Assembly: GCF_024494725.1 (NCBI RefSeq)
Contig: NZ_JANHDK010000001.1
Span: 1,364,001-1,428,000, forward strand
Reading direction: 5' to 3'
Origin: Haloplanus ruber
Lineage (GTDB): Archaea; Halobacteriota; Halobacteria; Halobacteriales; Haloferacaceae
Length of the DNA stretch: 64,000 nucleotides
In this document: piece after piece, positions 7,614-33,780 of the stretch
Layout: each line of letters begins with the position of its first letter
How positions within the stretch are numbered: the first letter of the stretch is position 1
The notes under the pieces: generated by a model
Seen by the model: the letters and a program-made list of their open reading frames with translations, nothing else
What the model was told of the DNA's origin: nothing
Database searches by the model: none
Made by a program: the position numbers and the translations under genes

Positions 7614-8294
7614 CTACGAAAGTGTGAGTTCGATATAGTCTTCGATATCGGATTCGGCAAGCAGTTGGCGTTGATTCTCCGAGAGATCGGAATACGAGAG
7701 TCGCTCGTCATCGATCATACGGTAGATGAGCCCCCGAATCTCTTCCGGATACGATCCGAATAACTCCTCTTTCAGATCCTCAAACGCAGTTCGCATCTCT
7801 TCACCATACTCTCGGGCATTCTCCTTCAGTTCGGCAAGCTCGTTATTCCCGTCAAGGTAGACGTGTTCTTTCCATCGCCAGTCATCGAGAAGTCCCTCAA
7901 GAGCCTGTAGACGCATCCCACTGACACGGTCAACGCGGTCGTTCAGACGCCGCATCGCAGTAACGGTCGAATTATGCTTCAACCGGAGTTCCTGAATACG
8001 GTTCTCCACCGTCTGTTCGGCTGCATCGACATCATCTCTGAGGTTGGAAAGACGTTCTTCGACTGTATCGTAATCGTTCTGCTTAAGCAAGCGAAGAACC
8101 TCTTGAACGCGCTCTTTGGCGGTCGTATCTATCTCGATTTCCTCCTGAAAGAACGCCTTCGCAAGCGTCCGCTGGAGAATAGTCTCTTCCATCACCTCCG
8201 CAATTTCGTCGAGTTCGTCGGACAGGTATCGTCGACGATGCTCTTCTTGAACCTTCTTTAGCCGATCCTGAAGCGGTTCTGACTCAGTCGACAT
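7614..8294 (-). CDS. Coiled-coil protein, last gene of restriction operon (DpdI position)
   Basis: From the ATG at 8294 the protein is 226 residues; five more codons upstream are open. It is almost entirely charged, helical sequence with heptad-like spacing (about 10-200) and no catalytic motif. The start lies inside the end of the 954-residue ATPase gene (11-nt overlap), so the two are translationally coupled and probably interact. In bacterial Dpd islands a small gene follows dpdG-dpdH, which makes this a positional counterpart of dpdI. That equivalence is inferred from order only. Confidence 0.7.
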   Translation of the reverse strand: MSTESEPLQDRLKKVQEEHRRRYLSDELDEIAEVMEETILQRTLAKAFFQEEIEIDTTAKERVQEVLRLLKQNDYDTVEERLSNLRDDVDAAEQTVENRIQELRLKHNSTVTAMRRLNDRVDRVSGMRLQALEGLLDDWRWKEHVYLDGNNELAELKENAREYGEEMRTAFEDLKEELFGSYPEEIRGLIYRMIDDERLSYSDLSENQRQLLAESDIEDYIELTLS

Positions 8295-11148
8295 AGTACT
8301 CACCCACACTCAGGAAGTGTTCAGCGAAGTCACCGCTCGATCCTCCACCGACGATTGTAATATCGTTGTAGCGCTGATACGCGTCGGTCGCCGTGAGTTT
8401 CATACTGATGAGTATGGCTTGGATTTGTTCATCGTTCGATCTGTGAATGAGCCGGGATGCTGTCTCCGCTGCTTCGACAGCGTCGTCGATTGCCGTTTGA
8501 TCCAACGCTACGAATTTGCTCACGGATTCGATCATCTCCGAATCGGCACTGTCGTAGGTATTCAGGGTATCGACGATATCCTCAATATTCGATAGAGAGA
8601 CTGACGAGAGTTCATCCGTGAAGACGGTGATCGTATCCGACCGATACTCGTCTCCGAGGTTATCGAGGGCGGCTTGTACGTCGTAGGCTTGGTCAGCCAT
8701 GTCCCGAATTTTGTTGTCGGTATCGAACCGAACCCGTGGGGAAATTTGCTGGATGTATTGCCGACCCAGCCCTGACAGCACTTCGTAGGGTGGATTTTTG
8801 TGGAGACGCTCTCGAATCCTTGCAAGATCCAGCGTATTGGCATTCGCGCCAAAGAGCGCACCGACCATCTCCTCGAAGTACTCTCCGTATTCGAGGAAAT
8901 CACGAACGTGTGAGAACTGATCGCCCAGTTCCTCTTTGAGATCCGTTCTGATCCCCGAATCAAGAGTATACGAGCCACTCTGAGAGAAGCGTCGACTCAG
9001 AGTTTGTGCGCTCAACTCCTCGAATGGAGAGTCGAGCATAACGATGCGCGCATATCCTGCCAGAACGAAATCCGCGAAGTCGTAGTTAGCCGACTGTTTG
9101 AACAAGCGCTGTCGGGAGTGGAGTTCATTCTCCTTGATTTTCTTTCGCCAGTGCTTGGCGTACCCCGTGAGCTGTGTTCCAAGACTCCGGAACAATCCCT
9201 CGAAATCTGCATTCGATTTGTCTTCTTCCCGATAGATGCCAAACTTCAAGAGATTCTTCAAATCTGAAAGTCGGAATTCTTCAGGATCGAGGACGATTTG
9301 ATCTCCCTCTGGGGCTCGCTGAAGGGATTCGAAGACGAATGGATCTTTCTGGCTACTTAGATTATATCTGAGAGTTATATCGCCGAACAACTGGTATCCG
9401 TTCGTCAGACGCTCGATCGCATCTCTGAGGCCAGAACGGATGTATCGACTAATCTCCGAGAAATCTGCAGGGTTCTTCTGCCAAGGCTGTACGTTCGGAC
9501 GATGTTCATCGATCAACCGCTCCGCTTTCGATTTCGGTTTGGGTTGTGGTTCAGGCTCTGGTTCAGGCTCCGGATCCGGTTCAGGCCCGGTTGAAGCAAT
9601 TTCTGTCGGAATGATCGTATACCCCGAAGCTTGGTCCACGTGGTTGATACTCGAAACCAACTCTACGAAGCCGAACGCTTCGATGAAACGTGTGTCTACC
9701 TTGATTCCGTCTGTCGTTTGCTTACCATACCATCGAGCCAATTTCGCGAGCGATTCGGCTTGTTCATAAATTTCGGTCGCCGGGTCGACCGAGTTTCGTA
9801 ACGTCGATAGCCGATCCGCATCGGATGGAGAATCCACGTATCCGTCATAGTAGTCACGAAGGATGTCGAAAACTGCCATCACGTATTCACGTGGGGACTG
9901 CTCATCCTCACGGAGGCCGGCGTAGACACGACGGAGAAACGCTTCGTTGAACGGGAAGAGATCGCGGAACGACTCATCACAGAATTCACACTCTCCACAG
10001 ATAGAGTTCTCTGGCGCTGGCTCAAGCGCTAACTCAAGACCCTCGCCACTTCGGTCGTACGAGACACTTCCGTCGAAGGATTTGAAGTAGCCAAGATACG
10101 GGCGGATGAAGTCAACTGCTGACTCCTCGTCGAGAAACAGAACACTATTGGAATTCTGTCGGTTCGTGCGGTAGAATTCGAAGCGATCCTCGGCAGTTTG
10201 GGTGTGAAGAACTCCCGTCGAATCTCGCGTACCTGCGACAACGAAGTCCCAGTTATCGCTTGCCTTGTCGCGCTCCATGTAGTTACGCAACCGCTCTCCC
10301 TCCATCGCTGTAATTGCGAAATCCTCAAAGATAATTACCGGGCGTGTATCCGTGAATTTCTGACCGACACGCTCTAGAACGTCATCGAGGGACGCGGTCT
10401 GGTAGCGTTCGCGGATCACTCTCCACAGCTCTGCGTTGAACGCGGAGACCGCTTCTTCGTCGGGGATATCGTCTTCAATGATCTGGAGGAATTCGTTCCG
10501 TTGGTACGCTTGCTCCGTCACGAACTTGATCTCTTTCGCGTACTCCCCTTTTTCAACGAGAAGAGAAAGCTGATCCTTAACGAACTCGCGAATTTTTTCC
10601 TCTTTATCCTGAACTTCAACGGAGTATCCTCGAGCAGTCAGGTTTAGGATTGCACCGGACGTTGCGTTGTTCGCGACGACACTTCCGTTCTGTTCGAGAT
10701 CGTCTCTGAGTTGCTGGAAATTTGAAGCTCCGGGAAGTGACTCGTCGAAGTGATCCTCGTAGAACTCCGGAATTCGTTCGGAAAGCAGCGTCATCAGATC
10801 ATCGTCTTTGTCGACGTGGAGGATCGGTCGACCGTCGTCTCTCAGTCGGTGAGCTAAATAGGCACAGAGTTCGGATTTCCCGGTCCCGACTTCACCTTCT
10901 ATGACGACGGTGAAATTCCCAGGTCGCTCGTCGGAAAATTCACGATATACCTCTTCTTCGCCGACGATTTCCTCTTCGGATTGGGTTCCCTGCGGAGAGC
11001 GGAATACTTTGATCGGCCGATGAGTGAATTCGAAGAGTTCGCGGTTATCGGACCGGACTGCTGCGACCTTCGAGAACAGCTGTCTGAGTGTCTTTTCGTC
11101 GACATTCTGGAAGTGCGGACAGTAGAGGTCTGGTTGTTCCGTACTCAT
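8284..11148 (-). CDS. DpdH-like P-loop ATPase
   Basis: The 954-residue protein has Walker A GEVGTGKS at residues 85-92 and a Walker B strand VIIFEDF at 271-277, so it is an AAA/STAND-like ATPase. A CGECEFC zinc-type motif follows at about residue 400. Residues near 520-545 form a low-complexity linker of alternating Pro and acidic or basic residues, separating the ATPase half from a C-terminal half with no recognised fold. It starts one nucleotide after the stop of the 278-residue gene and overlaps the coiled-coil gene downstream. Size, the P-loop and the position after a DpdG-like gene suggest DpdH. DpdH is thought to belong to the restriction rather than the modification arm. Confidence 0.7.
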   Translation of the reverse strand: MSTEQPDLYCPHFQNVDEKTLRQLFSKVAAVRSDNRELFEFTHRPIKVFRSPQGTQSEEEIVGEEEVYREFSDERPGNFTVVIEGEVGTGKSELCAYLAHRLRDDGRPILHVDKDDDLMTLLSERIPEFYEDHFDESLPGASNFQQLRDDLEQNGSVVANNATSGAILNLTARGYSVEVQDKEEKIREFVKDQLSLLVEKGEYAKEIKFVTEQAYQRNEFLQIIEDDIPDEEAVSAFNAELWRVIRERYQTASLDDVLERVGQKFTDTRPVIIFEDFAITAMEGERLRNYMERDKASDNWDFVVAGTRDSTGVLHTQTAEDRFEFYRTNRQNSNSVLFLDEESAVDFIRPYLGYFKSFDGSVSYDRSGEGLELALEPAPENSICGECEFCDESFRDLFPFNEAFLRRVYAGLREDEQSPREYVMAVFDILRDYYDGYVDSPSDADRLSTLRNSVDPATEIYEQAESLAKLARWYGKQTTDGIKVDTRFIEAFGFVELVSSINHVDQASGYTIIPTEIASTGPEPDPEPEPEPEPQPKPKSKAERLIDEHRPNVQPWQKNPADFSEISRYIRSGLRDAIERLTNGYQLFGDITLRYNLSSQKDPFVFESLQRAPEGDQIVLDPEEFRLSDLKNLLKFGIYREEDKSNADFEGLFRSLGTQLTGYAKHWRKKIKENELHSRQRLFKQSANYDFADFVLAGYARIVMLDSPFEELSAQTLSRRFSQSGSYTLDSGIRTDLKEELGDQFSHVRDFLEYGEYFEEMVGALFGANANTLDLARIRERLHKNPPYEVLSGLGRQYIQQISPRVRFDTDNKIRDMADQAYDVQAALDNLGDEYRSDTITVFTDELSSVSLSNIEDIVDTLNTYDSADSEMIESVSKFVALDQTAIDDAVEAAETASRLIHRSNDEQIQAILISMKLTATDAYQRYNDITIVGGGSSGDFAEHFLSVGEYYVD
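9538..9590 (-). repeat. Low-complexity repeat coding a Pro-Glu linker
   Basis: A run of near-identical 6-nt units encodes (Pro-Glu/Asp)n inside the ATPase gene. Haloarchaeal proteins often use such linkers; slippage here would change linker length without disrupting the frame. Confidence 0.6.
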
Positions 11149-11149: not shown

Positions 11150-11986
11150 TCAGATCAGGGTGATCGTGTTCGCTTGGCTATCAATTCCGTCGTACGGTGG
11201 CACGCCTCCGAGTCCAACGGCCCCGGCGTCACCGTACTCGACGACCTCGATTTCGCCGTCGCGGACGAGTTCGAACAGAATTCTGGCGAGTCCTTCGGGG
11301 ATGTTCCCGTCAGATGTCGATTCGACGTACAGGAGGTGCTCTCGGAGCCATCGGAGATACTCTTCTACTTCGATTCCTGGGCCACCATCGACGTCGATAC
11401 CGCGGTCGTGGGTAGCCAATTCTAGTGAGGTTCGCACCAACTCCGGATCTGGATAGACGGTGTGTTCGCGTCCTCGAACCTTGTGTACCAACCCGAGGAA
11501 GTGAACGAGCCGTGTCCAGTTCGCGAACTTGTTGTCGTTGTGTTCGATGCGCCCCTGTTGAGACTGCGGTAGATACCCGAGTTCGTTGAACCATTCGTCG
11601 ATATCGGTGTAGAGCCTCTCTTCGTTGTTTTCGAAGAACTGGATGTCGTTTCGCAGTAGGTAGCTGTAGTTCAGTAGTACGACGGCTTGTTTCCCCCACG
11701 ATCCAGGTTGACATTCCTGTGCGAGACCGTGAAGTGCCGTGAGTTTGAAATTCAGCTCGTCGTTGCCGACGTCCCACTGGAATGGCTTCGTGTAGTACTC
11801 TCCCTCTTCCTTGCCAATCATCCGGAGAAGACGTAGTCCGCCGAGAGCGGCGTCTAATCCAGAGTCGATGCCGGTATCCGTCTTGATCGCGTCCTTCGTA
11901 CAGTTCCCATCGTCGACGGAACGATAGATCGGGAGGAGGGGTCCCGGAGTCTGAACTGTGTTGAGAATGTAACCTTCACTACTCAT
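11150..11986 (-). CDS. DpdG-like winged-helix protein
   Basis: The 278-residue protein begins with a helical segment followed by a short domain resembling a winged helix (about 25-65, where the LGGLRLLRMIGKE stretch could be the recognition part). A helical middle carries the NWTRLVHFLGLVH segment near 155-167. There is no enzymatic motif. Its ATG overlaps the stop of the upstream 310-residue gene by 4 nt, and its stop is 1 nt before the ATPase start. Length, the helix-turn-helix-like start and position directly before a large ATPase match DpdG. A role as DNA-binding adaptor of the restriction complex is inferred. Confidence 0.65.
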   Translation of the reverse strand: MSSEGYILNTVQTPGPLLPIYRSVDDGNCTKDAIKTDTGIDSGLDAALGGLRLLRMIGKEEGEYYTKPFQWDVGNDELNFKLTALHGLAQECQPGSWGKQAVVLLNYSYLLRNDIQFFENNEERLYTDIDEWFNELGYLPQSQQGRIEHNDNKFANWTRLVHFLGLVHKVRGREHTVYPDPELVRTSLELATHDRGIDVDGGPGIEVEEYLRWLREHLLYVESTSDGNIPEGLARILFELVRDGEIEVVEYGDAGAVGLGGVPPYDGIDSQANTITLI

Positions 11987-12915
11987 AGGAACTCCTCTTC
12001 CAACCAGGAACGGTATCGCTTATGAATTGAGGACTCATCGGGGTTGATACTTTTCGCCTCTTGCCGCGCTTCATGAACTTTGGGACTCCGGGGAACGTAC
12101 GAGGGATCGAACGTTTTCCCCTCTTCCCCGACAGCCCTATTGAGCGACTGCGCGATATCGCGAGCTGTTTTGCGATCCCACTCGACACGTCTCCGTAGCC
12201 AGCGTTCCAAGCCCTCCACATCATCTTCGCTCAGGGGGACGGTTCCAAATTCATCTTCGCGTCCGAATATCTGGCCGAATACACTATAGAGGGGCAGATA
12301 CGGCGCGTCCGGGAGTACGTCGAATAACTCCTCGGTCGTCTCGATTGATTGGCCGGTCACGAATGCGTAGATATTCGCGTTGTCGTGGAGGAAGATGTTC
12401 ATCGTATCCAAGAGCGGGAATCCCCAACCAGCGTTCTCGTATATCGACTCGAATCCGTTGTACAGGCGTTGGTAGGAACCGACAGCCTCGACGAACTGTT
12501 CTTGATATAGCGGGCGTTGTCCTCCCCGAGGAGTGAATCGCTTGGAATCAGTAACGATGAGAAGCGTTTCCGGAACGGACGAGTACCGGCTAACTAGGTG
12601 ATCGACCGAGTATTGTGTCTCCGACTCGTAATACTCGTTAGAGATGACGACAAGATCGTCATCGAACGCTTCCTCTTCGATTTGGCCGAGAACCTTGTAT
12701 TCGTACTCGAGGTAGTCGTACTGCTGTGAATACGACTGGAACTGTCCACCCGTATTGAGGGTGCGCCAAGACGTCGGATAGGTGAACGTCTCGAAGCCAA
12801 GATAGTGAATGGCCGGAAGCGACCTGAGGAGCCACCAGTACGTCTCGTCGACATCGTCGTGAATAACTGCGACGTCGGCGTTGCGTAGCCGTTTGAAGGT
12901 CGCCGGTTCGTCCAT
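11983..12915 (-). CDS. Hypothetical protein of the helicase operon
   Basis: The 310-residue protein is not recognised. The first about 150 residues alternate hydrophobic strands and helices (VAVIHDD near 14-20, DLVVISNEYYE near 87-97, LLIVTDS near 117-123), like a Rossmann-type or receiver-type fold. The last about 80 residues are charged and helical and end in WLEEEFL. There is no HKD (phospholipase D) motif, so it is not a DpdK/DrmC equivalent. The start codon shares one base with the stop of the helicase gene (TGATG), and the end overlaps the DpdG-like gene by 4 nt. It is therefore co-translated with the helicase and probably forms part of the same complex. Confidence 0.7.
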   Translation of the reverse strand: MDEPATFKRLRNADVAVIHDDVDETYWWLLRSLPAIHYLGFETFTYPTSWRTLNTGGQFQSYSQQYDYLEYEYKVLGQIEEEAFDDDLVVISNEYYESETQYSVDHLVSRYSSVPETLLIVTDSKRFTPRGGQRPLYQEQFVEAVGSYQRLYNGFESIYENAGWGFPLLDTMNIFLHDNANIYAFVTGQSIETTEELFDVLPDAPYLPLYSVFGQIFGREDEFGTVPLSEDDVEGLERWLRRRVEWDRKTARDIAQSLNRAVGEEGKTFDPSYVPRSPKVHEARQEAKSINPDESSIHKRYRSWLEEEFL

Positions 12916-15900
12916 CAGTGGGACTCAGCTCCGATAATCTCTCCAAGTGTCCGGTTGTCTAGGAGGTCGTTTTCGAGATAGTACGCGGGCGTTCGCGAAA
13001 GTAGGAGGCACTCGTCACAGTAGTCGTCACATCGGTCACAGGCCGCAATCTCGGCGACACGAGATTCGATATCGTCTATAGCGTTCCAGACTTGCCAGGC
13101 GATTCCGTTACCTCCCTGCCGACTGTCGACAATACGGACAACCACCTCTGTTTCCTCCTTATTCGCCTTCACACGGAAGTCGGAGCGATCACACTGCGCC
13201 ACGACAGCAATCGCCTTATCCAGCGCCTGCTCCAAGCTGACCAGCGCCTGTGGCCACGAGGCCGTCTCGTGGGTCAATCGATCGAAGCGGTTTCGAACAT
13301 CGTCAAAATCGAACCGGAGAGTGATTCCCTGAGTGTGATACTGTTGTCCCACAGGAGCGTACTCCTCGGTATCCGCATCTTCCAGCCGCTCCTGCCACGA
13401 ACGTCCGCTGTCCTCGGTCGTGGAATCTTGTTCGATTAGTGCTTCGGAGCGTAGAACTTCTTTGTCGGGACTGGCCGAATGGCGACGTTCGAAGGCGAAG
13501 ATGAAGTCGGTTATCTCGAGTTCGCCGTAGCTCGCATCGCAACTGAGACCGAATACGGAGCGTGAGGACGTGTTCTGGGGTCTTGCTGAATTCTCGGACG
13601 TAATTGACGTCGCCATAAGTCCGTGGGTGTTGTACATCCGCTGCCCCCCTTTCGCAGGCTTACACTCAACTGAACTCACACCGTGAACGTTCGTCTCTTC
13701 GAGACTTTCGTCACAGTGGGGGCACTGCGCGGCGTCATGAGAGTAGCTTTCGAATGGGCGGTCGCAGTCTTCGTTGACACAGACCATGACCGTCGCCAGC
13801 GGTGTCGACGATCCGTGGACATCGTCGACGATGTAGTCCGTCCCGTGGAGGGTGATGACGGAACCAAGGTCGTTTTCCGGGCCAGGATACATATCGTAGA
13901 GTCGGCCGGATGCTTCGAATTCGATACCCTCACTGTGCCCCTGAAATTTCACGGGGAATTGCTGTCCGAAACTTCGATAGTTCGCCAGATAGCCGAGTCG
14001 AGAGAGCCACTGGTCGAGTCGGTTGTTGTTCTCGGTGAACGCCTTGTTCGTCTCCGCAGATCCCGACAGGGCGGTGATGCGAGAGAATGTCTTTTCGACG
14101 CGGTTCGACACCGACAGTGGCCCATCTTCCACGAACGCTTGCTCGAACGCGTCCACACCGGGCTGACCGAAGACAGACTCGATGTGGCGCTCCAAGGCAT
14201 CGCGACGCTCGTCGAGGAGGAAATCGACGAGAATTCCCAAATTTTCCTCCACTCCGTTCACGAACGCCCCGAGGTTCTGATTGATTTCGGTGAGTTGGTA
14301 CATCCGCTCGAATATATTTGATGGGTGGGGATTTCGAGCCAGATATGCAAAGGTTTCCGTAACGACGTGGCCGGTGAGGATTTCGTCGAATTCGTACGGA
14401 TCAGGAACTCGAACTGGTTCGAACTCGTTGAGGAACGTTTCGAGATTTCCGTAATAATGGCCGTCAACGGGATGCTCTCCTCGAATCGCGGTTAGCACCA
14501 GCGAGGAACTTCCACGTGTTCGTCCGGTTCGACCACTACGCTGGACGTAATTCGTTAGTGTCGGCGGAATACCCACTTGTGAGACAGTATCCAGCGTACC
14601 GATGTCGACACCGAGTTCCATCGTCGGAGTTGAACTAACAATGTTCACGTCGGGGTCGTCCTTACGGAATCCTTCTTCAATAGCACCACGAAGGGTGTGG
14701 GGAATATTCCCTTTATGAATTCCCACGGAAATGAACTCGGGAGAGTTCCCATTCCTGATCGGAGTCGTAATATCGTGGGCCCAGTGGTCGATCGCATAAG
14801 GCCATCCAGAGTCAGCTTGTGCGTATCCCGGATCAACGGCGAGTGATCCGTCGTCTTCTCTCGTGAATCGACGATGGGTTTCGAGTGGATGTCCACAGTT
14901 GGGACACGTATCGATCGCATCGTCTTCAGGAACAGGATAGGAACGGTAACAATCCGTACAGAAGGCTGTCCGTTCAAGCAACGTCAGATTGGAATCGTCT
15001 CGACGAAGTACACGTGTGAGGATGCCACTTTCTGCATCCGATTCGGAGTCGACAGCGTCGGCATATTCGTCACGGACGCGTTCGAGGTAGTCGAACGTTG
15101 CTTGTTTCTTTTCGTCGCTGATCGACGCGTTCGCTACCGTCTGTCTGACCTCCTCCCAAGACTGCTCGACGACGATCGATTGATTCAGTAGCCGTTGCAA
15201 AACTTTCGGTACGACTGACCCGACATCACCGCGGTCATATCCGGATCGCTTCGCAACACGGTTGATGATTTTCGGGAGCGACAGCCCCTCGATACTGATA
15301 TTGTTTTTACTGAATCCAACGCCCGGATCCGTTGCAAACAGCTTGTACGTCTCGTGTGCGATGACGATCTCTCTGGGGTCGTCGAACTCCGAAACCGGAG
15401 CGGCCGTGACGAGGGCACTGTCAAGGAGACCGGTGGCGTTGTGTAGCATCGCGTGGCCCTCAATATCGTCAAGGAGCGTTCGAAGGAAGTTGTAGGCCGT
15501 GCCGTCTTCGTCGATTTCGTTCTGAATCAGTGGCTCCCAGTACTCCTCTCGAAGACGATCCGCCACAGTTCGGAACAGTTCGTAATTGTCACGCGAGCCA
15601 CCGCTGTCGATCAGCTCTTCGATGTAGAGTGTCTGGGCCATCAGGCCGTACTCTGTTCCGATGATCCGGTCACCAACCGACTCTGCGGCGCTATGTGAAT
15701 CCGAGAAGACGAGCGTCTTCTTCGATGGAGAAGTACGGCATATCTCCGTTAGCATGTACGACAGCAAACTCGAAGTGGGTACCCCGATGTCAGAGAGGTT
15801 AGGCCACTGTTCACAACCGGGACAGGAGTCGACGGACTCAGCGTGATCGAACGGGCGGAATGTGTCCTCATCACCACTGACCTTCACTTCCACGTAGGGG

Positions 15901-17645
15901 TAGTGACACCGCTTGCAAAACTGGAGTTCGAGGTTCTCCGTGTTACAGGAAATACACCGTTTATCTCGGGTGACTTCACTGCACGCCTCGCACAGATACG
16001 CTCTGTGTGGCGGCTTGAGGAAGACGTGATATTTCTCCGTGATCATCCCAGCAAGTCGACCGAAAGCCATCACCGTACCCAGAACTCCTTCTGGATTTTC
16101 GACACCCGTCTCGGAGAGTTGTGTGAGAAGTTCGTCGTAGTGCTTGAATCCGACTTCCCCTGTCGTTCCTTCGTTGAACCACTGCGCGAATTCGGCAACC
16201 TCAGGAACCGAGTCGACGACGAAGTCGAACCACTCGCTGTATAGTCCACCGGCATCTAGGATTGCTTCGGAGAGCCGGTCATGGCCTCGGGGTGATTCGG
16301 CTACCGCACGCGGTGATTCGAACTCGCCTTCCGAAATGAGCGTCTGCGTTTCACTTCGGATGGGTGCTCGAATCCACTCAGCGTCAACCGAGAGCACTAT
16401 CTCTCCACTTGATTCCACTTCGACGAGCCCAACCTCGCTTGCTGTTTCGAATGCGTCTTCCAGTTCTTGCTCTCTCAGATCCGAAACCGTGACCCCACCC
16501 ACTCGTGCGAGCGCGATAACAGCCGCAAGGCCAGTTACATCCGTAGCTGTGAATCGGTTAAACCGAGGACGCCCGTTAACCGGAAATTCGCGGGGTGTGA
16601 ATCCGATTGAATTGATGTCGGATTCCGGCGTACCGGTGAGTTTGTGAGCGAGTTCGGTCGGATTATCGACCGTTGCCGAAACCATCGAAATCTGTGGATC
16701 GCGATCACCGTAAAACTCCTTGAGTCGTTCGGAGAGAAGACGAATTGACGCTCCAGAAATGCCGCTCCAGACGTGCGCTTCGTCGAAAACGATGTGCTCG
16801 ACGGGATGTTGTGCTGGATTTTCGCCAAGGATTTCGCGAGTCTCCGAATTGTTACTCACGAACATGTGGTCCAAAGCTTCGGGGTTCGTGAGGAGGATAT
16901 CAGCACCGTTCCGAATGGCGTCCCGCGTTACTCTGATCCACGAATACCGATTATCGTCGGTACCGACTGTCATATCCCCGAGTATGCGTAGCTTCTCGCC
17001 TTCCTCTCGTGGACACTCAAGGCCCCGAATATAGGAACCCTCCTCGATCTCGTGCTCTCTGGTACCGATACGAGTCGGTGTGTCGGAGTCCCAGATTCCG
17101 ATTGTGATTCGGTCTTCGGGTTCTCGATACCGATTAATTCGGTCAAGATACGAAATGAACCGGTTGAGTTGATCGACACCGAGCGTTTTCATCGGATACA
17201 CAATAAGTGACTTCAGACCCGACTCTTCGGTAGAGAGACAATGATTCAAAATCGGGAAAAAGAACGCCTCTGTCTTCCCTGTCGCCGTTGGGACGGCGAG
17301 GATGTTGTCATCCGAATCGGCTGAAATGGCCTCAATTGTCTGTGCCTGATGCTCGTATAATGATCCAGTTTCGTTTCCGTCGAATAGTTCGTCAACGATC
17401 GCCTCGACTAGTTCGTCGCGGTACCCGAGATCAGCCAGAAAGTCGGCAGCAGGTTGCTCGTAGAACTTCGGTGCATCGACAAATTCGACGTACGGCCCCT
17501 TCTGCTCCACGATTTCGTTCTGGACGAACGAGGTAGCGGCTTCGTCATCGACCACATGGTTAAGCCGCGTCATCTGTCGATTCCACCAAGTAATCTCCGA
17601 CGCTCTGTCGACCGCAGCTTCGAGGGTTCGTTGTGGGGAGTGCAT
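12915..17645 (-). CDS. DEAD/DEAH-box helicase with C-terminal DUF1998, DruE/DrmB/MrfA-like
   Basis: The 1576-residue protein has Walker A PTATGKT at 119-125, DEAH at 288-291, SAT at 323-325 and motif VI QRSGRTGR in the second lobe. Several zinc-ribbon CxxC pairs follow: CEAC/CISC/CKRC/CPGC in the 560-640 region, then CTDC/CPNC and CPHC. The end carries a DUF1998-type domain with CDRC...CDEC. This layout is that of the YprA/MrfA family and of large helicases in defence systems (DrmB, DruE). It opens the five-gene minus-strand operon and is probably the motor of the restriction arm. It is longer than typical MrfA proteins (about 750 residues). Its own promoter (TATA on the minus strand at 17,687-17,693) lies in the 57-nt gap from the upstream gene. 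Confidence 0.85.
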   Translation of the reverse strand: MHSPQRTLEAAVDRASEITWWNRQMTRLNHVVDDEAATSFVQNEIVEQKGPYVEFVDAPKFYEQPAADFLADLGYRDELVEAIVDELFDGNETGSLYEHQAQTIEAISADSDDNILAVPTATGKTEAFFFPILNHCLSTEESGLKSLIVYPMKTLGVDQLNRFISYLDRINRYREPEDRITIGIWDSDTPTRIGTREHEIEEGSYIRGLECPREEGEKLRILGDMTVGTDDNRYSWIRVTRDAIRNGADILLTNPEALDHMFVSNNSETREILGENPAQHPVEHIVFDEAHVWSGISGASIRLLSERLKEFYGDRDPQISMVSATVDNPTELAHKLTGTPESDINSIGFTPREFPVNGRPRFNRFTATDVTGLAAVIALARVGGVTVSDLREQELEDAFETASEVGLVEVESSGEIVLSVDAEWIRAPIRSETQTLISEGEFESPRAVAESPRGHDRLSEAILDAGGLYSEWFDFVVDSVPEVAEFAQWFNEGTTGEVGFKHYDELLTQLSETGVENPEGVLGTVMAFGRLAGMITEKYHVFLKPPHRAYLCEACSEVTRDKRCISCNTENLELQFCKRCHYPYVEVKVSGDEDTFRPFDHAESVDSCPGCEQWPNLSDIGVPTSSLLSYMLTEICRTSPSKKTLVFSDSHSAAESVGDRIIGTEYGLMAQTLYIEELIDSGGSRDNYELFRTVADRLREEYWEPLIQNEIDEDGTAYNFLRTLLDDIEGHAMLHNATGLLDSALVTAAPVSEFDDPREIVIAHETYKLFATDPGVGFSKNNISIEGLSLPKIINRVAKRSGYDRGDVGSVVPKVLQRLLNQSIVVEQSWEEVRQTVANASISDEKKQATFDYLERVRDEYADAVDSESDAESGILTRVLRRDDSNLTLLERTAFCTDCYRSYPVPEDDAIDTCPNCGHPLETHRRFTREDDGSLAVDPGYAQADSGWPYAIDHWAHDITTPIRNGNSPEFISVGIHKGNIPHTLRGAIEEGFRKDDPDVNIVSSTPTMELGVDIGTLDTVSQVGIPPTLTNYVQRSGRTGRTRGSSSLVLTAIRGEHPVDGHYYGNLETFLNEFEPVRVPDPYEFDEILTGHVVTETFAYLARNPHPSNIFERMYQLTEINQNLGAFVNGVEENLGILVDFLLDERRDALERHIESVFGQPGVDAFEQAFVEDGPLSVSNRVEKTFSRITALSGSAETNKAFTENNNRLDQWLSRLGYLANYRSFGQQFPVKFQGHSEGIEFEASGRLYDMYPGPENDLGSVITLHGTDYIVDDVHGSSTPLATVMVCVNEDCDRPFESYSHDAAQCPHCDESLEETNVHGVSSVECKPAKGGQRMYNTHGLMATSITSENSARPQNTSSRSVFGLSCDASYGELEITDFIFAFERRHSASPDKEVLRSEALIEQDSTTEDSGRSWQERLEDADTEEYAPVGQQYHTQGITLRFDFDDVRNRFDRLTHETASWPQALVSLEQALDKAIAVVAQCDRSDFRVKANKEETEVVVRIVDSRQGGNGIAWQVWNAIDDIESRVAEIAACDRCDDYCDECLLLSRTPAYYLENDLLDNRTLGEIIGAESH

Positions 17646-22200: not shown

Positions 22201-23441
22201 TGGCGAAGGCACGTTCTACGGGCACATTCCGCTTCGAAGTGAAGGAAAGAGCGGGAGATGCTCGAACTGGAGAACTATTCGTCAAGGACACGCAACTTTC
22301 CACCCCGAATCTATTTCCAGTTATCAACTTCTACGCCGGGGGGATGGAACGGAGCGTCTACGGTGGTGGTGTACACCGAACAATAAAGGAGCTGATGATT
22401 GGTGCAGATCGGGTCGGTATCGGCCCCCTCTCAGAGTATTTCGACGCGACGATGATGTCCGTCTCTTCACTCACCGATTACAATATCTCACGCGAGCGCT
22501 ACGAAGATTACCTTGCCGCACCGATCAAAGAGCGTGATCTTTTCGAGCCGTTCGATGGTCTCCTCTTCACGGATTCGGGTGGTTTCAAATTCTTGAATAA
22601 TGCGGAGATAGACGGAAGCGACTTCGAGGTGGAAATGAATCAAGAAGCGGTGTACGAGATTCAACAGGCGCTAGGTAGCGATATCATCGTCAACCTTGAT
22701 CACCCAATCGCCCCTGACGACACCCACCAAGATCGTGTCGAAAAGGCCGAAAAGACGGCGGCGAACATCCACAAATTCCTCACACTCACTCGGGATTTTG
22801 ACGGCGCACAGTATCTCACCCTGCACGGGTACAATTACTCGATGATGGACGAGTTCCTCGACGTCATTACTGATCGCGTTCCTGCCGGTGTTCTCCGGGA
22901 AGGTTTTGACGGGATCGCCCTTGGAAGCCTCGTACCCAAGAAAGACGACCGTGGTGCGCTGATCCAAGCCGTCACCGACTGTCGCGAGGTGATGGTCGAG
23001 TGGGGGATGGAAGATTGGCCGCTACATGTTCTCGGAATCTCCAGCCGGGCAATCCCTCTGCTGGCCGGTCTCGGGGCAGATACATTTGACTCGAGCACTC
23101 ACCTTCACAATGCCATCAACAGGAAGTACCAGCAATCGTTGATGGAAACCATATCGATAGATGAAGTGGATTTCAGTGAGTGTGACTGTCCGGTTTGCCA
23201 GTCCGACTTGCTCGTACAGCGAATGAAGGGAGACGCCAAGTATCAGAAGGACATTCTCGGGCCAGTCGCGATGCATAACCTGATCATCCAAAAGCGGGAA
23301 TTAGCGGAAATTCGACAACGGATTCGACAGGACGGAACGAAGGCCTTAGTCGAATACTTCGAGAAGACGTTCAGTAGAGATAAGACGATGCGGCGATTCG
23401 CCCATCAAGTAGTCAATCAGTCTCTCGGAGGATATTTCTAA
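22200..23441 (+). CDS. DpdA-like 7-deazaguanine DNA transglycosylase (TGT family)
   Basis: The 413-residue protein from ATG 22,200 is a queuine/archaeosine tRNA-ribosyltransferase fold. The DSGGF substrate loop has D125 (TDSGGFK, 124-130). The GIALGSLVP strand (238-246) corresponds to the base-binding GG loop. The second aspartate is in GADTFDS (D297), and a zinc site is formed by C328, C330, C333 and H359. Both catalytic aspartates appear intact. It lacks the PUA domain that archaeal tRNA TGTs use to bind tRNA, and its neighbours are defence genes, so DNA is the likely substrate, as in DpdA. It probably exchanges guanine for preQ0. It is coupled to the DUF6884 gene upstream and the GHKL ATPase downstream by 1-nt overlaps. 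Confidence 0.85.
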   Translation: MAKARSTGTFRFEVKERAGDARTGELFVKDTQLSTPNLFPVINFYAGGMERSVYGGGVHRTIKELMIGADRVGIGPLSEYFDATMMSVSSLTDYNISRERYEDYLAAPIKERDLFEPFDGLLFTDSGGFKFLNNAEIDGSDFEVEMNQEAVYEIQQALGSDIIVNLDHPIAPDDTHQDRVEKAEKTAANIHKFLTLTRDFDGAQYLTLHGYNYSMMDEFLDVITDRVPAGVLREGFDGIALGSLVPKKDDRGALIQAVTDCREVMVEWGMEDWPLHVLGISSRAIPLLAGLGADTFDSSTHLHNAINRKYQQSLMETISIDEVDFSECDCPVCQSDLLVQRMKGDAKYQKDILGPVAMHNLIIQKRELAEIRQRIRQDGTKALVEYFEKTFSRDKTMRRFAHQVVNQSLGGYF

Positions 23442-25023: not shown

Positions 25024-27030
25024 CTACTTGCTGTCACGGGAGGGGACTGTCCGCTCGTCAAGATGGTCGAGTAACTCTTGGATATTGCTGTTACGGAAGT
25101 ACTCGGTGAGCTGGAGCGCCTGCGGATCCCGCGGGAGGACGGTTCCCTGACCGTACGCATCAAAGGCGTCTTCAACGACCTGTCGGTAGGTCTTGCTCGT
25201 CACGTAGGCGACGATTTCGTCGAATTGATCACCGTACTCCTCCAGATAGCGGAGTACGCGATCGGTCACAAGTGTGATCTGATCATTGTCCTCCTTCGCG
25301 AGAACGTAGTCATATTCCAAGACCGGCTGTTCTCGCTCGAATTCTTTTGGGACAGGTCCGTACATGCCCGAGACGGTTAGCTTATGAATTCGGCTCGTTC
25401 GGTCGCCCAGCTTATCGAACAGGACGGAGTGTGTGCGGGATTCCGAGTATGGTTTCTTTTGACTACACGGGATCAACAGGAGAACATCTTTGTCCGCTGG
25501 CGGCTCGTGAGAACGAGTGAAGATATTGAAATCGTTTGGGCTATACTTGAGTGAGATCCGTCGGTTGTTAGTCGATTCGTCGACACCGGCGTCCCACTGG
25601 GATAGCTTCGCCTGATCGCTGGTGAGAGTTGAGCCTGGGAGAAGATCGTACGCTTCCCGTGCCTCGATATCTTGGCGGAGTCTCTTGTCGCGTAGTTGGG
25701 CCTCTTTGAGACCCTTCTTGATATCGTCGTGGTCGCGTGCGAAGTCGATGACGTAGTCCAGAAGTCGCCCATCCTGAATCGCTTCACGGACGTGTCTGAG
25801 TTCTTCATTGTAAAGCTCGAAATTGTGACGAGCCAATAGCGCGTAGTAGTCGCTCTTGATTGGCTCTCCGTTCTCTTTGCGCTCTTGGCGTTCGTCGTAG
25901 CTGAGATCAGTATTCAGTTCTTCTAGTAGGGTTTCATAGTCAATGCCGTCGTCACCGCACAGCGTACACTCGGGGAGGTCACAGGGAAAGCTCCCATCCG
26001 GCCGGAGATGTTCCTCAAGTTCTTCGAGCTTGTAGTGTGACCACGTCTCCGGGTGAGTGTACTTCTTGTATCGTGCAGTCTGCATATGCGTTGAACAATC
26101 GAACGAGTCGACACCGAGAAGAGAGAGCAGACCGACCTGTTTCCCTCCGACACCGAAGACGTGGAGGCCGATTTCGTCGGAGTGTGCCTCTGGGATTGCG
26201 TCTTTCGCTCCTTGGACAATATCCACAAGAACGTCGATACTGCTTCGTAATGGAACTAGCGAGCCGATAGCGAATCCTTCGAATGAACTTTCGATATTGA
26301 CTTCTTCAACGCGATCAAGGAAATTCCCGACATACCAGTTGATTGTCTCGTAGTCATGGCCGTGAAGGGCGATATAGACTCCCGGCTCTTCGCCAGCGGC
26401 TTTTTGTGCCCGAAGCCGATCAGCGGCACGGCTGTTAATATCGAAATTCTCCTCTAGGAGTGACGGGTCATCGAGAATGCGGAGACATTCGACAGCACTG
26501 TCGATGCTCTTGTTCATCCGTTCGACAGTCTCGTCATCTCGAAGGTTCGGCGGAATGGGGTAGTCCAACGTTGCGACGATGTCCGCCCCGAAATCGAGCT
26601 GCAGACCGAGGATACTCTTCGGATCGGTATAGAGTCCCCATTCGTTGGGGACGCCACCTTTCTCGGGGGCGTCACCAAACGTGTTCGAATTCATCAGCTT
26701 GAATCCTCCCGAGTCGATGAAGATGGGTGCGTTCAGATCCTCAAAGCGTTCGTGAAACGTTTCAGTTCGCCAGAAGTCGTTTAGGTTGTCTGGAGAGACG
26801 CCATAGTCGGTGAAACTCATCGCCTGAAACATTATTCCTTGAAGGTGATCCTTCGAAATGAGCTTGTCCCGCATCCGACGCCACACGCCTCCGGATTTCT
26901 CCGTAGTACCGCCGATCAGGTTGACGACAGGAAAGAGAACAGGTGTTTCGACAGGGCCGTGAGGAACGTCAAGTTCCCCGAGTCGACCATAGCCATCGTC
27001 TCCGACGAGTTTCACGCTGAACGATGCCAT
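25024..27030 (-). CDS. DpdA-like transglycosylase fused to ArcS-type DUF5591 domain
   Basis: In the 668-residue protein, residues 1-420 are a TGT fold with D106 in FIDSGGFK, strand GFAIGSLVP (252-260), D311 in GVDSFDCSTH and a zinc site C350/C355/C358/H402. Residues about 512-640 are an ArcS-like domain with the full archaeosine-synthase signature PCX3KPYX2SX2H: P521, C522, K526, P527, Y528, S531, H534. GMYGPVPKEFE follows near 555-565. In tRNA ArcS this motif joins lysine to preQ0, and the TGT half of ArcS is catalytically dead; here both halves look intact. No PUA domain is visible. It may insert preQ0 into DNA and convert it to a lysine adduct, with a radical SAM enzyme such as host RaSEA needed to reach archaeosine. 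It converges with the GHKL gene, 26 nt apart. Confidence 0.8.
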   Translation of the reverse strand: MASFSVKLVGDDGYGRLGELDVPHGPVETPVLFPVVNLIGGTTEKSGGVWRRMRDKLISKDHLQGIMFQAMSFTDYGVSPDNLNDFWRTETFHERFEDLNAPIFIDSGGFKLMNSNTFGDAPEKGGVPNEWGLYTDPKSILGLQLDFGADIVATLDYPIPPNLRDDETVERMNKSIDSAVECLRILDDPSLLEENFDINSRAADRLRAQKAAGEEPGVYIALHGHDYETINWYVGNFLDRVEEVNIESSFEGFAIGSLVPLRSSIDVLVDIVQGAKDAIPEAHSDEIGLHVFGVGGKQVGLLSLLGVDSFDCSTHMQTARYKKYTHPETWSHYKLEELEEHLRPDGSFPCDLPECTLCGDDGIDYETLLEELNTDLSYDERQERKENGEPIKSDYYALLARHNFELYNEELRHVREAIQDGRLLDYVIDFARDHDDIKKGLKEAQLRDKRLRQDIEAREAYDLLPGSTLTSDQAKLSQWDAGVDESTNNRRISLKYSPNDFNIFTRSHEPPADKDVLLLIPCSQKKPYSESRTHSVLFDKLGDRTSRIHKLTVSGMYGPVPKEFEREQPVLEYDYVLAKEDNDQITLVTDRVLRYLEEYGDQFDEIVAYVTSKTYRQVVEDAFDAYGQGTVLPRDPQALQLTEYFRNSNIQELLDHLDERTVPSRDSK

Positions 27031-28200: not shown

Positions 28201-28659
28201 ATGTCTGAGAGAATACCTGGATCATATTCTGGAAGCATACTTACCGACGCTGGTGAACGAACACTCCATATCGGAGATGACCATCCGATACGGATTAGTG
28301 CCGGGCATCGGATTCAACACCACGAGGGGAAGTGCAGCCGACCCCATGGGCACAACTACGAAGTCTCCGTCTCACTAACTGGAGAGCTCACGGAAGCGGG
28401 CTGGGTCGTCGACAAAGGTGACGTAACTACGGTCATCAACGAGTGGGATCACCGATTTTTACTTGAAGAGGGCGACCCACTCATCGATGCCTTCGAACAG
28501 TCGAACGATCGTGATGCTGTCGTCATTCTCGACTACCCGCCGACAGCGGAAGTAATGAGCGTCATCCTCGAAGAGCGTCTCCAAAACGAACTACCTGATA
28601 CTGTCTCCGATGTCTCCGTCCAAGTGGCAGAAACAGGTGAACTCTGCTCCGGGTACTGA
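28201..28659 (+). CDS. queD: QueD-like 6-carboxy-5,6,7,8-tetrahydropterin synthase
   Basis: The 152-residue protein belongs to the PTPS/QueD family. The zinc histidines are in SAGHRIQHHEG (His near 38) and the CSRPHGHNYEV segment. The CX3HGH arrangement supplies the catalytic cysteine and two zinc ligands typical of QueD. The C-terminal CSGY end and the ETGELCS segment also fit the family. It turns 7,8-dihydroneopterin triphosphate (the FolE product) into CPH4, the second preQ0 step. It is the first gene of queD-queE-folE-queC, 3 nt before queE, and is expressed from its own leaderless promoter. In this context it feeds the DNA transglycosylases. Confidence 0.92.
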   Translation: MSERIPGSYSGSILTDAGERTLHIGDDHPIRISAGHRIQHHEGKCSRPHGHNYEVSVSLTGELTEAGWVVDKGDVTTVINEWDHRFLLEEGDPLIDAFEQSNDRDAVVILDYPPTAEVMSVILEERLQNELPDTVSDVSVQVAETGELCSGY

Positions 28660-28662
28660 TCT

Positions 28663-29439
28663 ATGCCAGTCAACGCAGAATCCCATCCCGAAAGCGGAGA
28701 TCATGATATCGATGGCGACGCTCTCCCCATCAACGAAGTTTTCTACTCTCTTCAGGGCGAAGGAAAACTTGCCGGAACGCCGTCGGTATTCATCAGAACG
28801 AGTGGTTGCAATCTCCGGTGTTGGTTCTGTGACTCATACCATACATCTTGGAAGCCGACCCACTCGTGGATGTCGATAGAGGATATCATCGACGAAGTCC
28901 GTACCTTCGATGAGGCAGACCATGTTGTCCTCACCGGCGGTGAGCCCCTAATCCACGAAGAGAGTGTCAAGCTGCTCGACGAACTCGCCGATTACGGCTA
29001 TCACACGACAGTCGAAACGAACGGCACAATCTATCGCGATACGGCAATTGATCTTGCAAGTATCAGTCCGAAACTTCGGAGTAGCACGCCGACTACCGAA
29101 CGCGACCCAGACGGCGAGGGAGAGTGGGCTAACCGTCATGACAGCCGGCGAATTAATCTGGATGCACTCAGACAACTCGTTACGAATTACGAGAGCCAGC
29201 TAAAGTTCGTCATCACGGGTGCCGACGACTTCGAGGAGATTACCGATCTTGTGGAACGCGTTCGAAACCAGACTCAGATAGCTGTACCTGATGACGATGT
29301 GCTACTCATGCCGGAAGGAAGAACACGCGATGAACTCGCCGACACGCGTACTACTGTCGCCGAATTAGCGATGGATCACGGTTATCGATACACACCTCGA
29401 CTACACGTCGACCTCTGGAACGATGCCTCAGGTACCTGA
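28663..29439 (+). CDS. queE: 7-carboxy-7-deazaguanine synthase QueE (radical SAM)
   Basis: The 258-residue protein opens its core with NEVFYSLQGEG, the QueE signature. The radical-SAM cluster motif is CNLRCWFC (CX3CX2C), followed by the SAM-binding LTGGEPL segment. It converts CPH4 to 7-carboxy-7-deazaguanine, the third preQ0 step. It is not RaSEA (the archaeosine-synthase partner), since the length and the SLQGEG start are those of QueE. It lies 3 nt after queD and 2 nt before folE, so all are co-transcribed. Confidence 0.93.
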   Translation: MPVNAESHPESGDHDIDGDALPINEVFYSLQGEGKLAGTPSVFIRTSGCNLRCWFCDSYHTSWKPTHSWMSIEDIIDEVRTFDEADHVVLTGGEPLIHEESVKLLDELADYGYHTTVETNGTIYRDTAIDLASISPKLRSSTPTTERDPDGEGEWANRHDSRRINLDALRQLVTNYESQLKFVITGADDFEEITDLVERVRNQTQIAVPDDDVLLMPEGRTRDELADTRTTVAELAMDHGYRYTPRLHVDLWNDASGT

Positions 29440-29441
29440 TC

Positions 29442-30074
29442 ATGGCAAATGAAGACACCCACCTCATAGAGACGAATCGTAGCTCCGATTCCAAGAACGG
29501 AGAATCGACAGCGATCGACCACGAGAAGGCTCAGCGAGGAGTACGACTTCTTCTGGAGGCGGTGGGCGAAAATCCTGATCGGACGGAACTCACGGAGACG
29601 TGGAAGCGTCGAGTTCCGGACGTACTAGAGACGTTTAGTGAGGGTGAGCGTCTCGAGGACAAACCAACCATGCGAACATTCGATGCGGATTCGGATGGGC
29701 TAATCGTCAAGACCGGTGTACCCGTGTACAGTCTTTGTGAACACCATCTGCTCCCGTATCACGGGAAAGCCCACGTCGCTTATCGACCCGAAGATCAAGT
29801 CGTCGGCCTCTCGAAACTTCCGCGATACGTTCGATGGCAGTCACGCCGGCTGACGATGCAAGAGCAGTTGACTCGTGATATCGCGGATGGCCTCGCTGAC
29901 GAAATTGGTGCGGAAGCGGTGTTGGTAGAGATCACGGCCACCCACATGTGTGAAGCCATGCGCGGCGTCGAGACAGCGACAGCGACAACGACTCGGGCGA
30001 CAGTCGGGTCTCCGACGGATACGGAACAGCGGCGCTTCAGAGACGCGATTCAGCGAGCGGAGGATTCAACATGA
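29442..30074 (+). CDS. folE: GTP cyclohydrolase I
   Basis: The 210-residue protein is a type I enzyme. The zinc ligands are in CEHHLLPYHG (Cys and His, near residue 97) and THMCEAMRG (second Cys). GLSKLPRYV and RLTMQEQLT are further family motifs. It hydrolyses GTP to dihydroneopterin triphosphate, the entry to preQ0. The first about 35 residues are a variable acidic extension. Many haloarchaea use the unrelated MptA for this step, so a FolE here suggests the island brings its own complete supply line. It overlaps the queC start by 4 nt. Confidence 0.93.
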   Translation: MANEDTHLIETNRSSDSKNGESTAIDHEKAQRGVRLLLEAVGENPDRTELTETWKRRVPDVLETFSEGERLEDKPTMRTFDADSDGLIVKTGVPVYSLCEHHLLPYHGKAHVAYRPEDQVVGLSKLPRYVRWQSRRLTMQEQLTRDIADGLADEIGAEAVLVEITATHMCEAMRGVETATATTTRATVGSPTDTEQRRFRDAIQRAEDST

Positions 30075-32745: not shown

Positions 32746-33780
32746 TCAATACGCCGTCGTTCGTGTGATATGGATGGTTCCGTCTATCTCGTCGCGCATT
32801 TGGAAGAGTTTGTAATCTAGATGGGGTGCGTAGACAGAAGAGTCTCGGCAGTCCATGAGTTTCTCAATGAGTTCGTCACCCGCATGGACGGTTGCCGCCC
32901 GCAGTTCGACTTCTTCTCGGCTTCCCGCTTCAATCATCGTTCGGGAATCGACTAATTCGGCGAGGTGATCTGAATACTCAAGCACGCCTAATTCACGAAG
33001 GACGTTGGGCAGATTGTAATCGACGAATAGCGTGAATGCACCAGGATCTTCGACTCGAAAGCACTCCTGATTTTGAAAACGACCGTAAGCCATTCCAGCC
33101 GCAAGTTGAGCGCGTTTCCAGAACGCGACTTCAAGTGCAGATCCATCAGCGAGGGTTACAGCGCTGGAATCATCGAATGAGGGCAAGTGAGTAACTAATC
33201 GATCTACAATACCATTTCCGTCGGCGTATAGGCACGGTTCCGCAGAATCGATGAGGTTTGCGAATCGACCGTCGTACTGATTGGAGAGGTTCTCGCCGAC
33301 TTGCGTGAGAATTTGATGACGTTCCTCGAGCATCGGAATCTCGTCACCGTCAGCAGGCTCGAACAGTCGTTCTACGTCAGAGAGGGACAAGTCGGAAAGC
33401 GTGTCGCCGCGTAGGATAGCAGGGTTATCATCGAATTCGCGGCGCAAGCAGGCCCACATAGCGAACGCGCCGCTCCACTCGGTTCCTGCATAGGTAGCGG
33501 TGAACTTGTCACCGGTGTCGTAATCGCGGAACTGAAAATTGATCGTATTGCCAAGAAACAGAAAATCTATAATATCCCTTTCAGAGACGCCCGAAGAATT
33601 CTCGTCGGGGAACACCGGAGCCCGCCACTCCGGGAGTGAGAATTCGTCTGCGGCTAGCCGTTCGGAGAGAAGTTCGATTGCTCCCTCTTGGATGTCCACG
33701 AACCTAAGCTCCGGAACTAGCGTTTGCACGCTCTCCCTGACGAGAGTCGTCGGGAGAGCTTGATTACCGGATGTACCCAT
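32746..33780 (-). CDS. Qng1/DUF2419-like queuosine-nucleotide N-glycosylase homologue
   Basis: The 344-residue protein matches the queuosine salvage protein family (human QNG1/C9orf64) across its length. The order of motifs is GNTINFQF (77-84), WSGAFAMWACL (102-112), PMLEERHQIL (149-158), FWKRAQL (220-226), FTLFVDYNLPNVL (249-261), LGVLEYSD (264-271) and REEVELRA (288-295). Known members cleave queuosine 5'-monophosphate to free queuine. Archaea are not known to make queuosine, so here the natural target may be another 7-deazaguanine nucleotide, such as those released from modified DNA, giving base back to the transglycosylases. A role on DNA is possible but speculative. Substrate unproven. 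Confidence 0.8.
   Translation of the reverse strand: MGTSGNQALPTTLVRESVQTLVPELRFVDIQEGAIELLSERLAADEFSLPEWRAPVFPDENSSGVSERDIIDFLFLGNTINFQFRDYDTGDKFTATYAGTEWSGAFAMWACLRREFDDNPAILRGDTLSDLSLSDVERLFEPADGDEIPMLEERHQILTQVGENLSNQYDGRFANLIDSAEPCLYADGNGIVDRLVTHLPSFDDSSAVTLADGSALEVAFWKRAQLAAGMAYGRFQNQECFRVEDPGAFTLFVDYNLPNVLRELGVLEYSDHLAELVDSRTMIEAGSREEVELRAATVHAGDELIEKLMDCRDSSVYAPHLDYKLFQMRDEIDGTIHITRTTAY

What the first reader, a model, noticed from the sequence alone, without database searches (positions are those of the whole stretch)
7614..33780. Archaeal 7-deazaguanine DNA modification-restriction island unlike described Dpd systems
A complete preQ0 pathway (queD, queE, folE, queC), two TGT/DpdA-like enzymes, a DUF6884 protein, a GHKL ATPase, DUF1998 helicase, DpdG/DpdH-like proteins and a Qng1-like glycosylase lie on one AT-rich island. 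Bacterial Dpd systems have one DpdA, DpdB (ATPase) and DpdC; here DpdB and a clear DpdC are missing, and a second, ArcS-fused transglycosylase is present. Bacterial Dpd components are established knowledge; the archaeal system and its roles are inference.
Basis: partly seen in the sequence, partly recalled or inferred. Interest (0 to 1): 0.93.

Follow-up and report, generated by a model that had tools for sequence, protein, structure and literature searches.

The report
Haloarchaeal 7-deazaguanine DNA-marking defence island
A salt-loving archaeon carries, on a mobile piece of DNA inserted in a tRNA gene, what looks like a self/non-self DNA-marking defence system related to the bacterial Dpd system, but with a different marking half that may add lysine to a modified guanine base and so produce a DNA mark not yet described in cells.

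Summary
The window holds most of a ~51 kb AT-rich element inserted in a tRNA-Glu gene (42-bp att repeats; empty site in a same-genus genome). It carries a Dpd-type system in two modules. The restriction module belongs with bacterial Dpd: DpdH, DpdJ and DpdK homologues, with uncharacterised proteins where DpdG and DpdI sit; the DpdK gene crosses the window's left edge. The modification module is a DUF6884-TGT-GHKL operon, kept intact in nearly all ~30 haloarchaeal genomes that have it, usually with a second TGT fused to an ArcS lysine-transfer domain but lacking the tRNA-binding PUA domain. Both TGTs keep the catalytic residues and form sister clades outside both the tRNA TGT/ArcS clade and the classical DpdA clade. 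Corrections: DpdC is not missing (the DUF6884 protein is its homologue); the Qng1-like gene is probably a passenger; DpdB is absent, and a MORC/MutL-like ATPase occupies its place; the preQ0 genes include the genome's only QueC. Verdict: a new variant of a known kind (Dpd), probably marking DNA with dPreQ0, dADG or, through the ArcS domain, dPreQ0-Lys/dG+. The chemistry and the defence role are unproven.

The parts
1..101 (-). 5' end of a PLD-family nuclease gene (DpdK homologue, 168 aa; the gene runs from 101 to -405, beyond the window edge)
   Evidence: Pfam PLDc_2 1.2e-8; family profile vs Paenibacillus DpdK 6.8e-17 and Enterobacter DpdK 1.4e-9; HKD ORF at the 3' end of the DpdJ gene in 12/13 relatives
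28..4101 (-). DpdJ-like helicase (1357 aa)
   Evidence: PADLOC DpdJ 8.4e-46; NCBIfam DpdJ 9.8e-43, below the equivalog cut-off; family profile vs Enterobacter DpdJ 1.2e-48
7614..8309 (-). coiled-coil protein (231 aa) in the DpdI position
   Evidence: conserved next to the DpdH-like gene in 14 loci; only weak similarity to the Haloferax 251-aa protein, 0.0086
8284..11148 (-). DpdH-like STAND-type ATPase (954 aa)
   Evidence: PADLOC DpdH 9.9e-14; NCBIfam DpdH 6e-14, below cut-off; profile-profile with bacterial/Haloferax DpdH 3e-19, probability 99
11150..11986 (-). 278-aa protein in the DpdG position
   Evidence: family profile vs Haloferax-type 287-aa protein 3.5e-13; bacterial DpdG only 0.03; 19 of 21 genomes that have it also have the DpdA-like gene, Fisher 3e-20
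11983..12915 (-). 310-aa protein of unknown fold, no bacterial Dpd counterpart found
   Evidence: conserved operon position; Haloferax-type 275-aa relative 7.8e-5; model pTM 0.83 without a significant fold match
12915..17645 (-). DEAD-box helicase with MrfA Zn-binding (MZB) domain
   Evidence: Pfam DEAD 2.9e-20, MZB 6.3e-9; family profile vs Haloferax-type helicase 1.9e-80, Enterobacter DpdJ 7.9e-25
21643..22200 (+). DUF6884 protein, DpdC homologue (proposed)
   Evidence: Pfam DUF6884 1.1e-13; PADLOC DpdC in 19/19 family members, best 6e-8
22197..23441 (+). DpdA-like transglycosylase (414 aa)
   Evidence: Pfam TGT 3.3e-25; TGT aspartates and Zn ligands D126, D298, C329, C331, C334, H360 invariant in 18 sequences; own clade 100/100
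23441..24997 (+). GHKL ATPase, MORC/SMCHD1/MutL/GyrB-like, in the DpdB slot
   Evidence: Pfam HATPase_c_3 2.4e-15; AlphaFold model (pTM 0.59) matches MORC4/MORC3 ATPase modules at about 1e-11; abuts or overlaps the DpdA-like gene in 27 of 28 loci
25024..27030 (-). TGT-ArcS fusion (TGT plus DUF5591, no PUA)
   Evidence: Pfam TGT 4.2e-26, DUF5591 4.7e-21, no PUA; residues 514-626 match 2q07 4.3e-10; motif PC-x3-KPY-x2-S-x2-H and TGT residues kept
28201..28659 (+). QueD
   Evidence: Pfam PTPS 1.9e-21
28663..29439 (+). QueE
   Evidence: Pfam Radical_SAM 2.3e-18; NCBIfam QueE 2.8e-31, below the family cut-off
29442..30074 (+). FolE (GTP cyclohydrolase I), only type I copy in the genome
30071..30769 (+). 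QueC, the only true QueC in the genome
34889..34930 (+). attR: 42-bp direct repeat of the tRNA-Glu 3' end (attL at -16092..-16051)

Best explanation
A Dpd-type DNA modification-restriction system with an archaeal modification module. QueD-QueE-FolE-QueC make preQ0 (established pathway). The DpdA-like TGT exchanges guanine for preQ0 in DNA, helped by the GHKL ATPase acting as an ATP-driven DNA clamp in the place of DpdB. The DUF6884 protein (DpdC homologue) hydrates dPreQ0 to dADG, and/or the ArcS domain of the second TGT transfers lysine to dPreQ0, which the host RaSEA could convert to dG+. The restriction operon (two helicases, DpdH-like ATPase, PLD nuclease and the 278-, 310- and 231-aa proteins) attacks DNA lacking the mark. 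Shown here: gene content, homology, catalytic residues, operon and island conservation, co-occurrence, integration site. Inferred: DNA as substrate, the identity of the final base, roles of GHKL, DUF6884 and the ArcS domain, and defence.
For: The restriction module has DpdH (profile-profile 3e-19), DpdJ (1.2e-48) and DpdK (6.8e-17) in the order seen in Enterobacter pPOL9A, G-H-I-J-K. It is statistically tied to this DpdA-like gene: 19 of 21 genomes with the 278-aa protein, Fisher 3e-20; the other two genomes (G103, G277) carry TGTs of the Haloferax-type Dpd system. DUF6884-DpdA-GHKL is kept as a tight operon in 28 relatives. The DUF6884 family matches DpdC. The host has separate tRNA enzymes TgtA and ArcS-with-PUA and RaSEA. 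Both island TGTs lie outside the tRNA clade, keep catalytic residues and lack PUA. T. kodakarensis ArcS acts on preQ0 nucleoside without the tRNA scaffold, and preQ0-Lys is not exchanged back (PMC11298593).
Against: No nucleoside data. DpdB not found; NCBIfam DpdA equivalog is far below cut-off (21.6 vs 200 bits) and the best-scoring model for the DpdA-like TGT is archaeal tRNA TGT (105 bits vs cut-off 350). Eleven of the 30 DpdA-positive genomes have no match to the 278-aa protein. The preQ0 genes include the only QueC in the genome, so they may also serve tRNA. A PUA domain is reported not to be required by archaeal TGT (title of Sabina and Soll 2006, cited in PMC11298593), so its absence is weak evidence.
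Confidence: 0.77

Rival explanations
1. The island TGTs modify tRNA (archaeosine or a variant) and the helicase/ATPase/PLD genes are an unrelated defence system that happens to share the island.
For: The best curated models for the TGT domains are tRNA TGT and ArcS families; the island holds the genome's only QueC; some islands lack the restriction operon.
Against: Chromosomal tgtA and ArcS are intact elsewhere; both island TGTs fall outside the tRNA clade; the association with the Dpd-like restriction operon is far from chance; a DpdC homologue and a GHKL ATPase sit in the same operon.
Confidence: 0.12
2. The restriction operon attacks DNA carrying 7-deazaguanine (modification-dependent, type IV-like), and the TGTs act otherwise, for example on RNA or protein as in QueC-family immune systems.
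For: Haloarchaeal viruses encode the preQ0/G+ pathway and HVTV-1 DNA carries dPreQ1 (PMC6884629, PMC8651126), so modified viral DNA is a real target; QueC-family deazaguanylation of protein is known in type IV CBASS (PMC13279940 abstract).
Against: Bacterial Dpd, with homologous DpdC and DpdH/J/K, is reported as a self-marking system (PMC11888242); a system that itself carries preQ0 synthesis and TGTs would risk marking its own DNA as target.
Confidence: 0.08

Closest known systems
Bacterial Dpd system (Salmonella Montevideo type; reference here Enterobacter cloacae pPOL9A, L105)
   Same: preQ0 genes, a TGT-family DpdA, a DpdC homologue (DUF6884), restriction operon with DpdH, DpdJ and DpdK in the same order, genomic-island location
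   Different: No DpdB, DpdD or DpdE found; the DpdA-like TGT is not in the classical DpdA clade; GHKL ATPase in the modification operon; second TGT fused to an ArcS domain; DpdG and DpdI only by position; extra 310-aa protein and MZB helicase
Second haloarchaeal Dpd-like type (Haloferax alexandrinus pBNX82-4, L099)
   Same: Related restriction operon in the same order (275 aa, 287 aa, DpdH-like, 251 aa, helicases, PLD); two TGT-family proteins; QueD
   Different: Its modification half has a 964-aa protein with DUF6884 that groups with classical DpdA, a 344-aa TGT and a BrxC/D-like ATPase; no GHKL and no ArcS fusion seen in the stretch read
Archaeosine pathway (ArcTGT, ArcS, RaSEA)
   Same: TGT fold; ArcS motif PC-x3-KPY-x2-S-x2-H and DUF5591 domain in the fusion protein
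   Different: The fusion has no PUA and keeps the TGT aspartates that the host's ArcS has lost; separate clade; encoded on a mobile island with restriction genes
BREX-Related Capture (BRC) systems (PMC12839542)
   Same: A TGT inside a defence cluster, no DpdB reported
   Different: BRC has PglZ, DUF6079, DUF4007, HerA/FtsK and GNAT; none of these was recognised in the window system

Membership tests
Dpd | preQ0 biosynthesis genes with the system | tested here: met
   QueD, QueE, FolE, QueC at 28201-30769
Dpd | DpdA of the classical clade | tested here: not met
   TGT family yes, but NCBIfam DpdA 21.6 bits vs cut-off 200 and a separate clade
Dpd | DpdB (DGQHR/DndB-like) | tested here: not met
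   no DpdB hit among the large ORFs scanned in PADLOC or NCBIfam; Enterobacter DpdB not among the best hhalign matches of the conserved families
Dpd | DpdC | tested here: met
   DUF6884 family: PADLOC DpdC 19/19, best 6e-8; hhalign with the Enterobacter candidate DpdC 9e-5
Dpd | DpdH, DpdJ, DpdK restriction proteins | tested here: met
   3e-19, 1.2e-48, 6.8e-17 respectively; NCBIfam equivalog cut-offs for DpdH and DpdJ are not reached
Dpd | DpdG and DpdI | tested here: inconclusive
   right size range and position; sequence signal only to the Haloferax type for the 278-aa protein (3.5e-13) and none convincing for the 231-aa protein
Dpd | DpdD and DpdE | tested here: not met
   no PADLOC or NCBIfam hit among the listed matches for the ORFs scanned
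Dpd | dPreQ0 or dADG in host DNA; restriction of unmodified DNA | not testable with these tools
   needs LC-MS/MS and transformation assays
ArcS (archaeosine synthase) | DUF5591 domain with PC-x3-KPY-x2-S-x2-H | tested here: met
ArcS (archaeosine synthase) | C-terminal PUA domain and tRNA-ArcS clade | tested here: not met
   no PUA in the fusion, PUA present in the host ArcS; separate clade; NCBIfam ArcS 113.8 bits vs cut-off 440

The most novel reading that the evidence does not exclude
The ArcS-fused TGT is a bifunctional enzyme that inserts preQ0 into DNA and caps it with lysine, so the host self-mark is dPreQ0-Lys, or dG+ after RaSEA: a cellular DNA base not described before as a host self-mark, as far as the held literature shows, protecting against a Dpd-type restriction machine with a GHKL clamp instead of DpdB.
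Probability: 0.3. Interest if true: 0.85.

Novelty: new variant of a known kind. Interest (0 to 1): 0.62.

Why it matters
It would extend 7-deazaguanine self-marking to archaeal chromosomes with a different enzyme set, show the Dpd restriction operon as a module that pairs with at least two kinds of modification half in haloarchaea, and predict a new DNA base testable in culture-collection strains such as Halorubrum lipolyticum DSM 21995 and Halorubrum cibi DSM 19504. It also bears on why haloarchaeal viruses carry preQ0-pathway genes.

Tried and rejected
Viral origin of the DpdA-like gene: no match in phage records or viral contigs (pattern-based). Qng1 as a conserved part: rejected. Fold of the 310-aa protein: no PDB match with E <= 0.001. 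DpdG/DpdI identity by profile-profile with bacterial proteins: inconclusive. PADLOC and NCBIfam scans of the 310- and 278-aa families: nothing useful. Direct similarity between the DUF6884 family and the ArcS domain of the fusion: weak only. The founding Dpd papers (PMC4801273, PMC10164549) and a review (PMC10966956) are not held, so earlier mention of archaeal Dpd in them could not be checked; PMC6884629 does mention a host DpdA in a haloarchaeon (EMA11768), whose type was not determined here.

Full report
Setting. The window is G000:C1:1364001-1428000 of a 3.28 Mb haloarchaeal assembly. GC is about 0.51 to near 35 kb and about 0.66 beyond. Sequence to the left of the window (locus L100) continues the AT-rich stretch to about -16 kb and encodes two tyrosine integrases, two serine recombinases and a TFIIB. 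In the same-genus genome G280 the two flanks lie a few hundred bases apart, at a tRNA-Glu(CTC) gene; in G000 a 42-bp copy of the 3' end of that tRNA gene sits at both island ends, -16092..-16051 and 34889..34930. The island is therefore about 51 kb, larger than the coordinates in the finding.

Gene content. Reading the minus strand: helicase with MZB domain (12915-17645), 310-aa protein, 278-aa protein, DpdH-like ATPase, 231-aa coiled coil, and further on the DpdJ-like helicase (28-4101) and a PLD protein at -405..101. Reading the plus strand: DUF6884, DpdA-like TGT, GHKL ATPase; then on the minus strand the TGT-DUF5591 fusion; then queD, queE, folE, queC on the plus strand.

Conservation. In a draw of 292 genomes of the class, 30 including our own carry an orthologue of the DpdA-like gene at E < 1e-100. 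In 28 other fetched loci DUF6884, DpdA-like and GHKL genes form an operon: adjacent in 28 of 28 and 27 of 28 comparisons, mostly overlapping or abutting. The ArcS-fused TGT lies in the fetched stretch in 24 of these 28; in G002 it is elsewhere in the genome, and in G142, G028 and G290 it was not seen in the fetched stretch. The 278-aa protein occurs in 21 of 292 genomes, 19 of which have the DpdA-like gene, Fisher 3e-20. The other two have TGTs of the Haloferax-type system: in G277 the restriction genes sit beside that system, and in G103 the TGT is on another contig. In a pattern-based scan of 84,980 species genomes, all relatives with 46% identity or more were Halobacteria; none was found in viral contigs.

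Relation to Dpd. Profiles of the archaeal families match bacterial DpdJ (1.2e-48) and DpdK (6.8e-17), and DpdH by profile-profile (3e-19); the DUF6884 family matches PADLOC DpdC in all 19 members, best 6e-8. The order H, (231 aa), J, K, preceded by the 278-aa protein, mirrors dpdG-H-(I)-J-K on Enterobacter pPOL9A. The 278-aa protein matches its Haloferax counterpart (3.5e-13) but not bacterial DpdG convincingly. DpdB, DpdD and DpdE were not found among the ORFs scanned.

The two TGTs. A maximum-likelihood tree of 60 TGT domains puts the DpdA-like family (100/100) and the ArcS-fused family (100/99) as sisters (90/76), next to the small TGTs of the Haloferax-type system (91/88), apart from the tgtA+ArcS clade (99/93) and from classical DpdA (100/98); some branches are long and deeper joins are uncertain. 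Both families keep the TGT aspartates (DpdA-like D126 and D298 invariant; fusion D106 and D311 invariant) and a Zn site. The host's own ArcS lacks the DSGG and FD motifs and carries a PUA domain; the fusion has the ArcS motif and no PUA. T. [quoted passage not shown] RaSEA is present in this genome. That the fusion acts on DNA is inference.

GHKL ATPase. The AlphaFold model (pTM 0.59) matches MORC, SMCHD1, MutL, GyrB and Hsp90 ATPase modules. A DNA-clamping role replacing DpdB is a proposal.

preQ0 genes. QueC and FolE type I are the only copies in the genome; a second PTPS and an MptA-type cyclohydrolase are elsewhere. In the genus only 3 of 12 genomes have QueC, and in the two others queC-queE-queD lie beside a different TGT gene. 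So the island genes may serve tRNA as well as DNA.

Reading. The weight of evidence favours a Dpd-type self-marking restriction system with a divergent archaeal modification half. It works like Dpd and shares much of its restriction operon, but two defining features (classical DpdA, DpdB) were tested and not met, so it is reported as a new variant rather than a member. The final base is open: dPreQ0, dADG, dPreQ0-Lys or dG+.

Noticed in passing
L099:8364-37659 (Haloferax alexandrinus pBNX82-4) and similar haloarchaeal plasmids: A second haloarchaeal Dpd-like type: 964-aa protein with DUF6884 grouping with classical DpdA, 344-aa TGT, BrxC/D-like ATPase, QueD, and a related restriction operon.
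   Followed up: partly
L103:9933-16114, L104:1074-7082, L107:19989-23963: Cyanobacterial and Paenibacillus plasmids with two TGTs: an approximately 700-aa protein annotated DpdA (DUF6884 fused to TGT in the one scanned, L103) and a small second TGT.
   Followed up: partly
L110:1962-3372 (Sulfolobus virus STSV2): Viral TGT next to a stand-alone DUF5591 protein, like a split ArcS.
   Followed up: no
L101:9995-19750 and L102:9995-19522: In the only other two QueC-bearing genomes of the genus, queC-queE-queD lie beside a divergent TGT and a large protein (weak BrxC/D match in L101), perhaps a BRC-like system.
   Followed up: partly
window 5528-6664: Protein with a weak uracil-DNA glycosylase superfamily match (0.0039).
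   Followed up: no
window 17703-20861: Protein with bacterial PH, four HNH-associated repeats and a C-terminal helix-hairpin-helix, in the middle of the island; partial matches in several related loci.
   Followed up: no
window 32746-33780: Qng1/Q_salvage gene, found in only 3 of 292 haloarchaeal genomes.
   Followed up: yes
window 31360-31905: HNH nuclease whose best NCBIfam match is the HNH part of IscB (3.8e-17).
   Followed up: no
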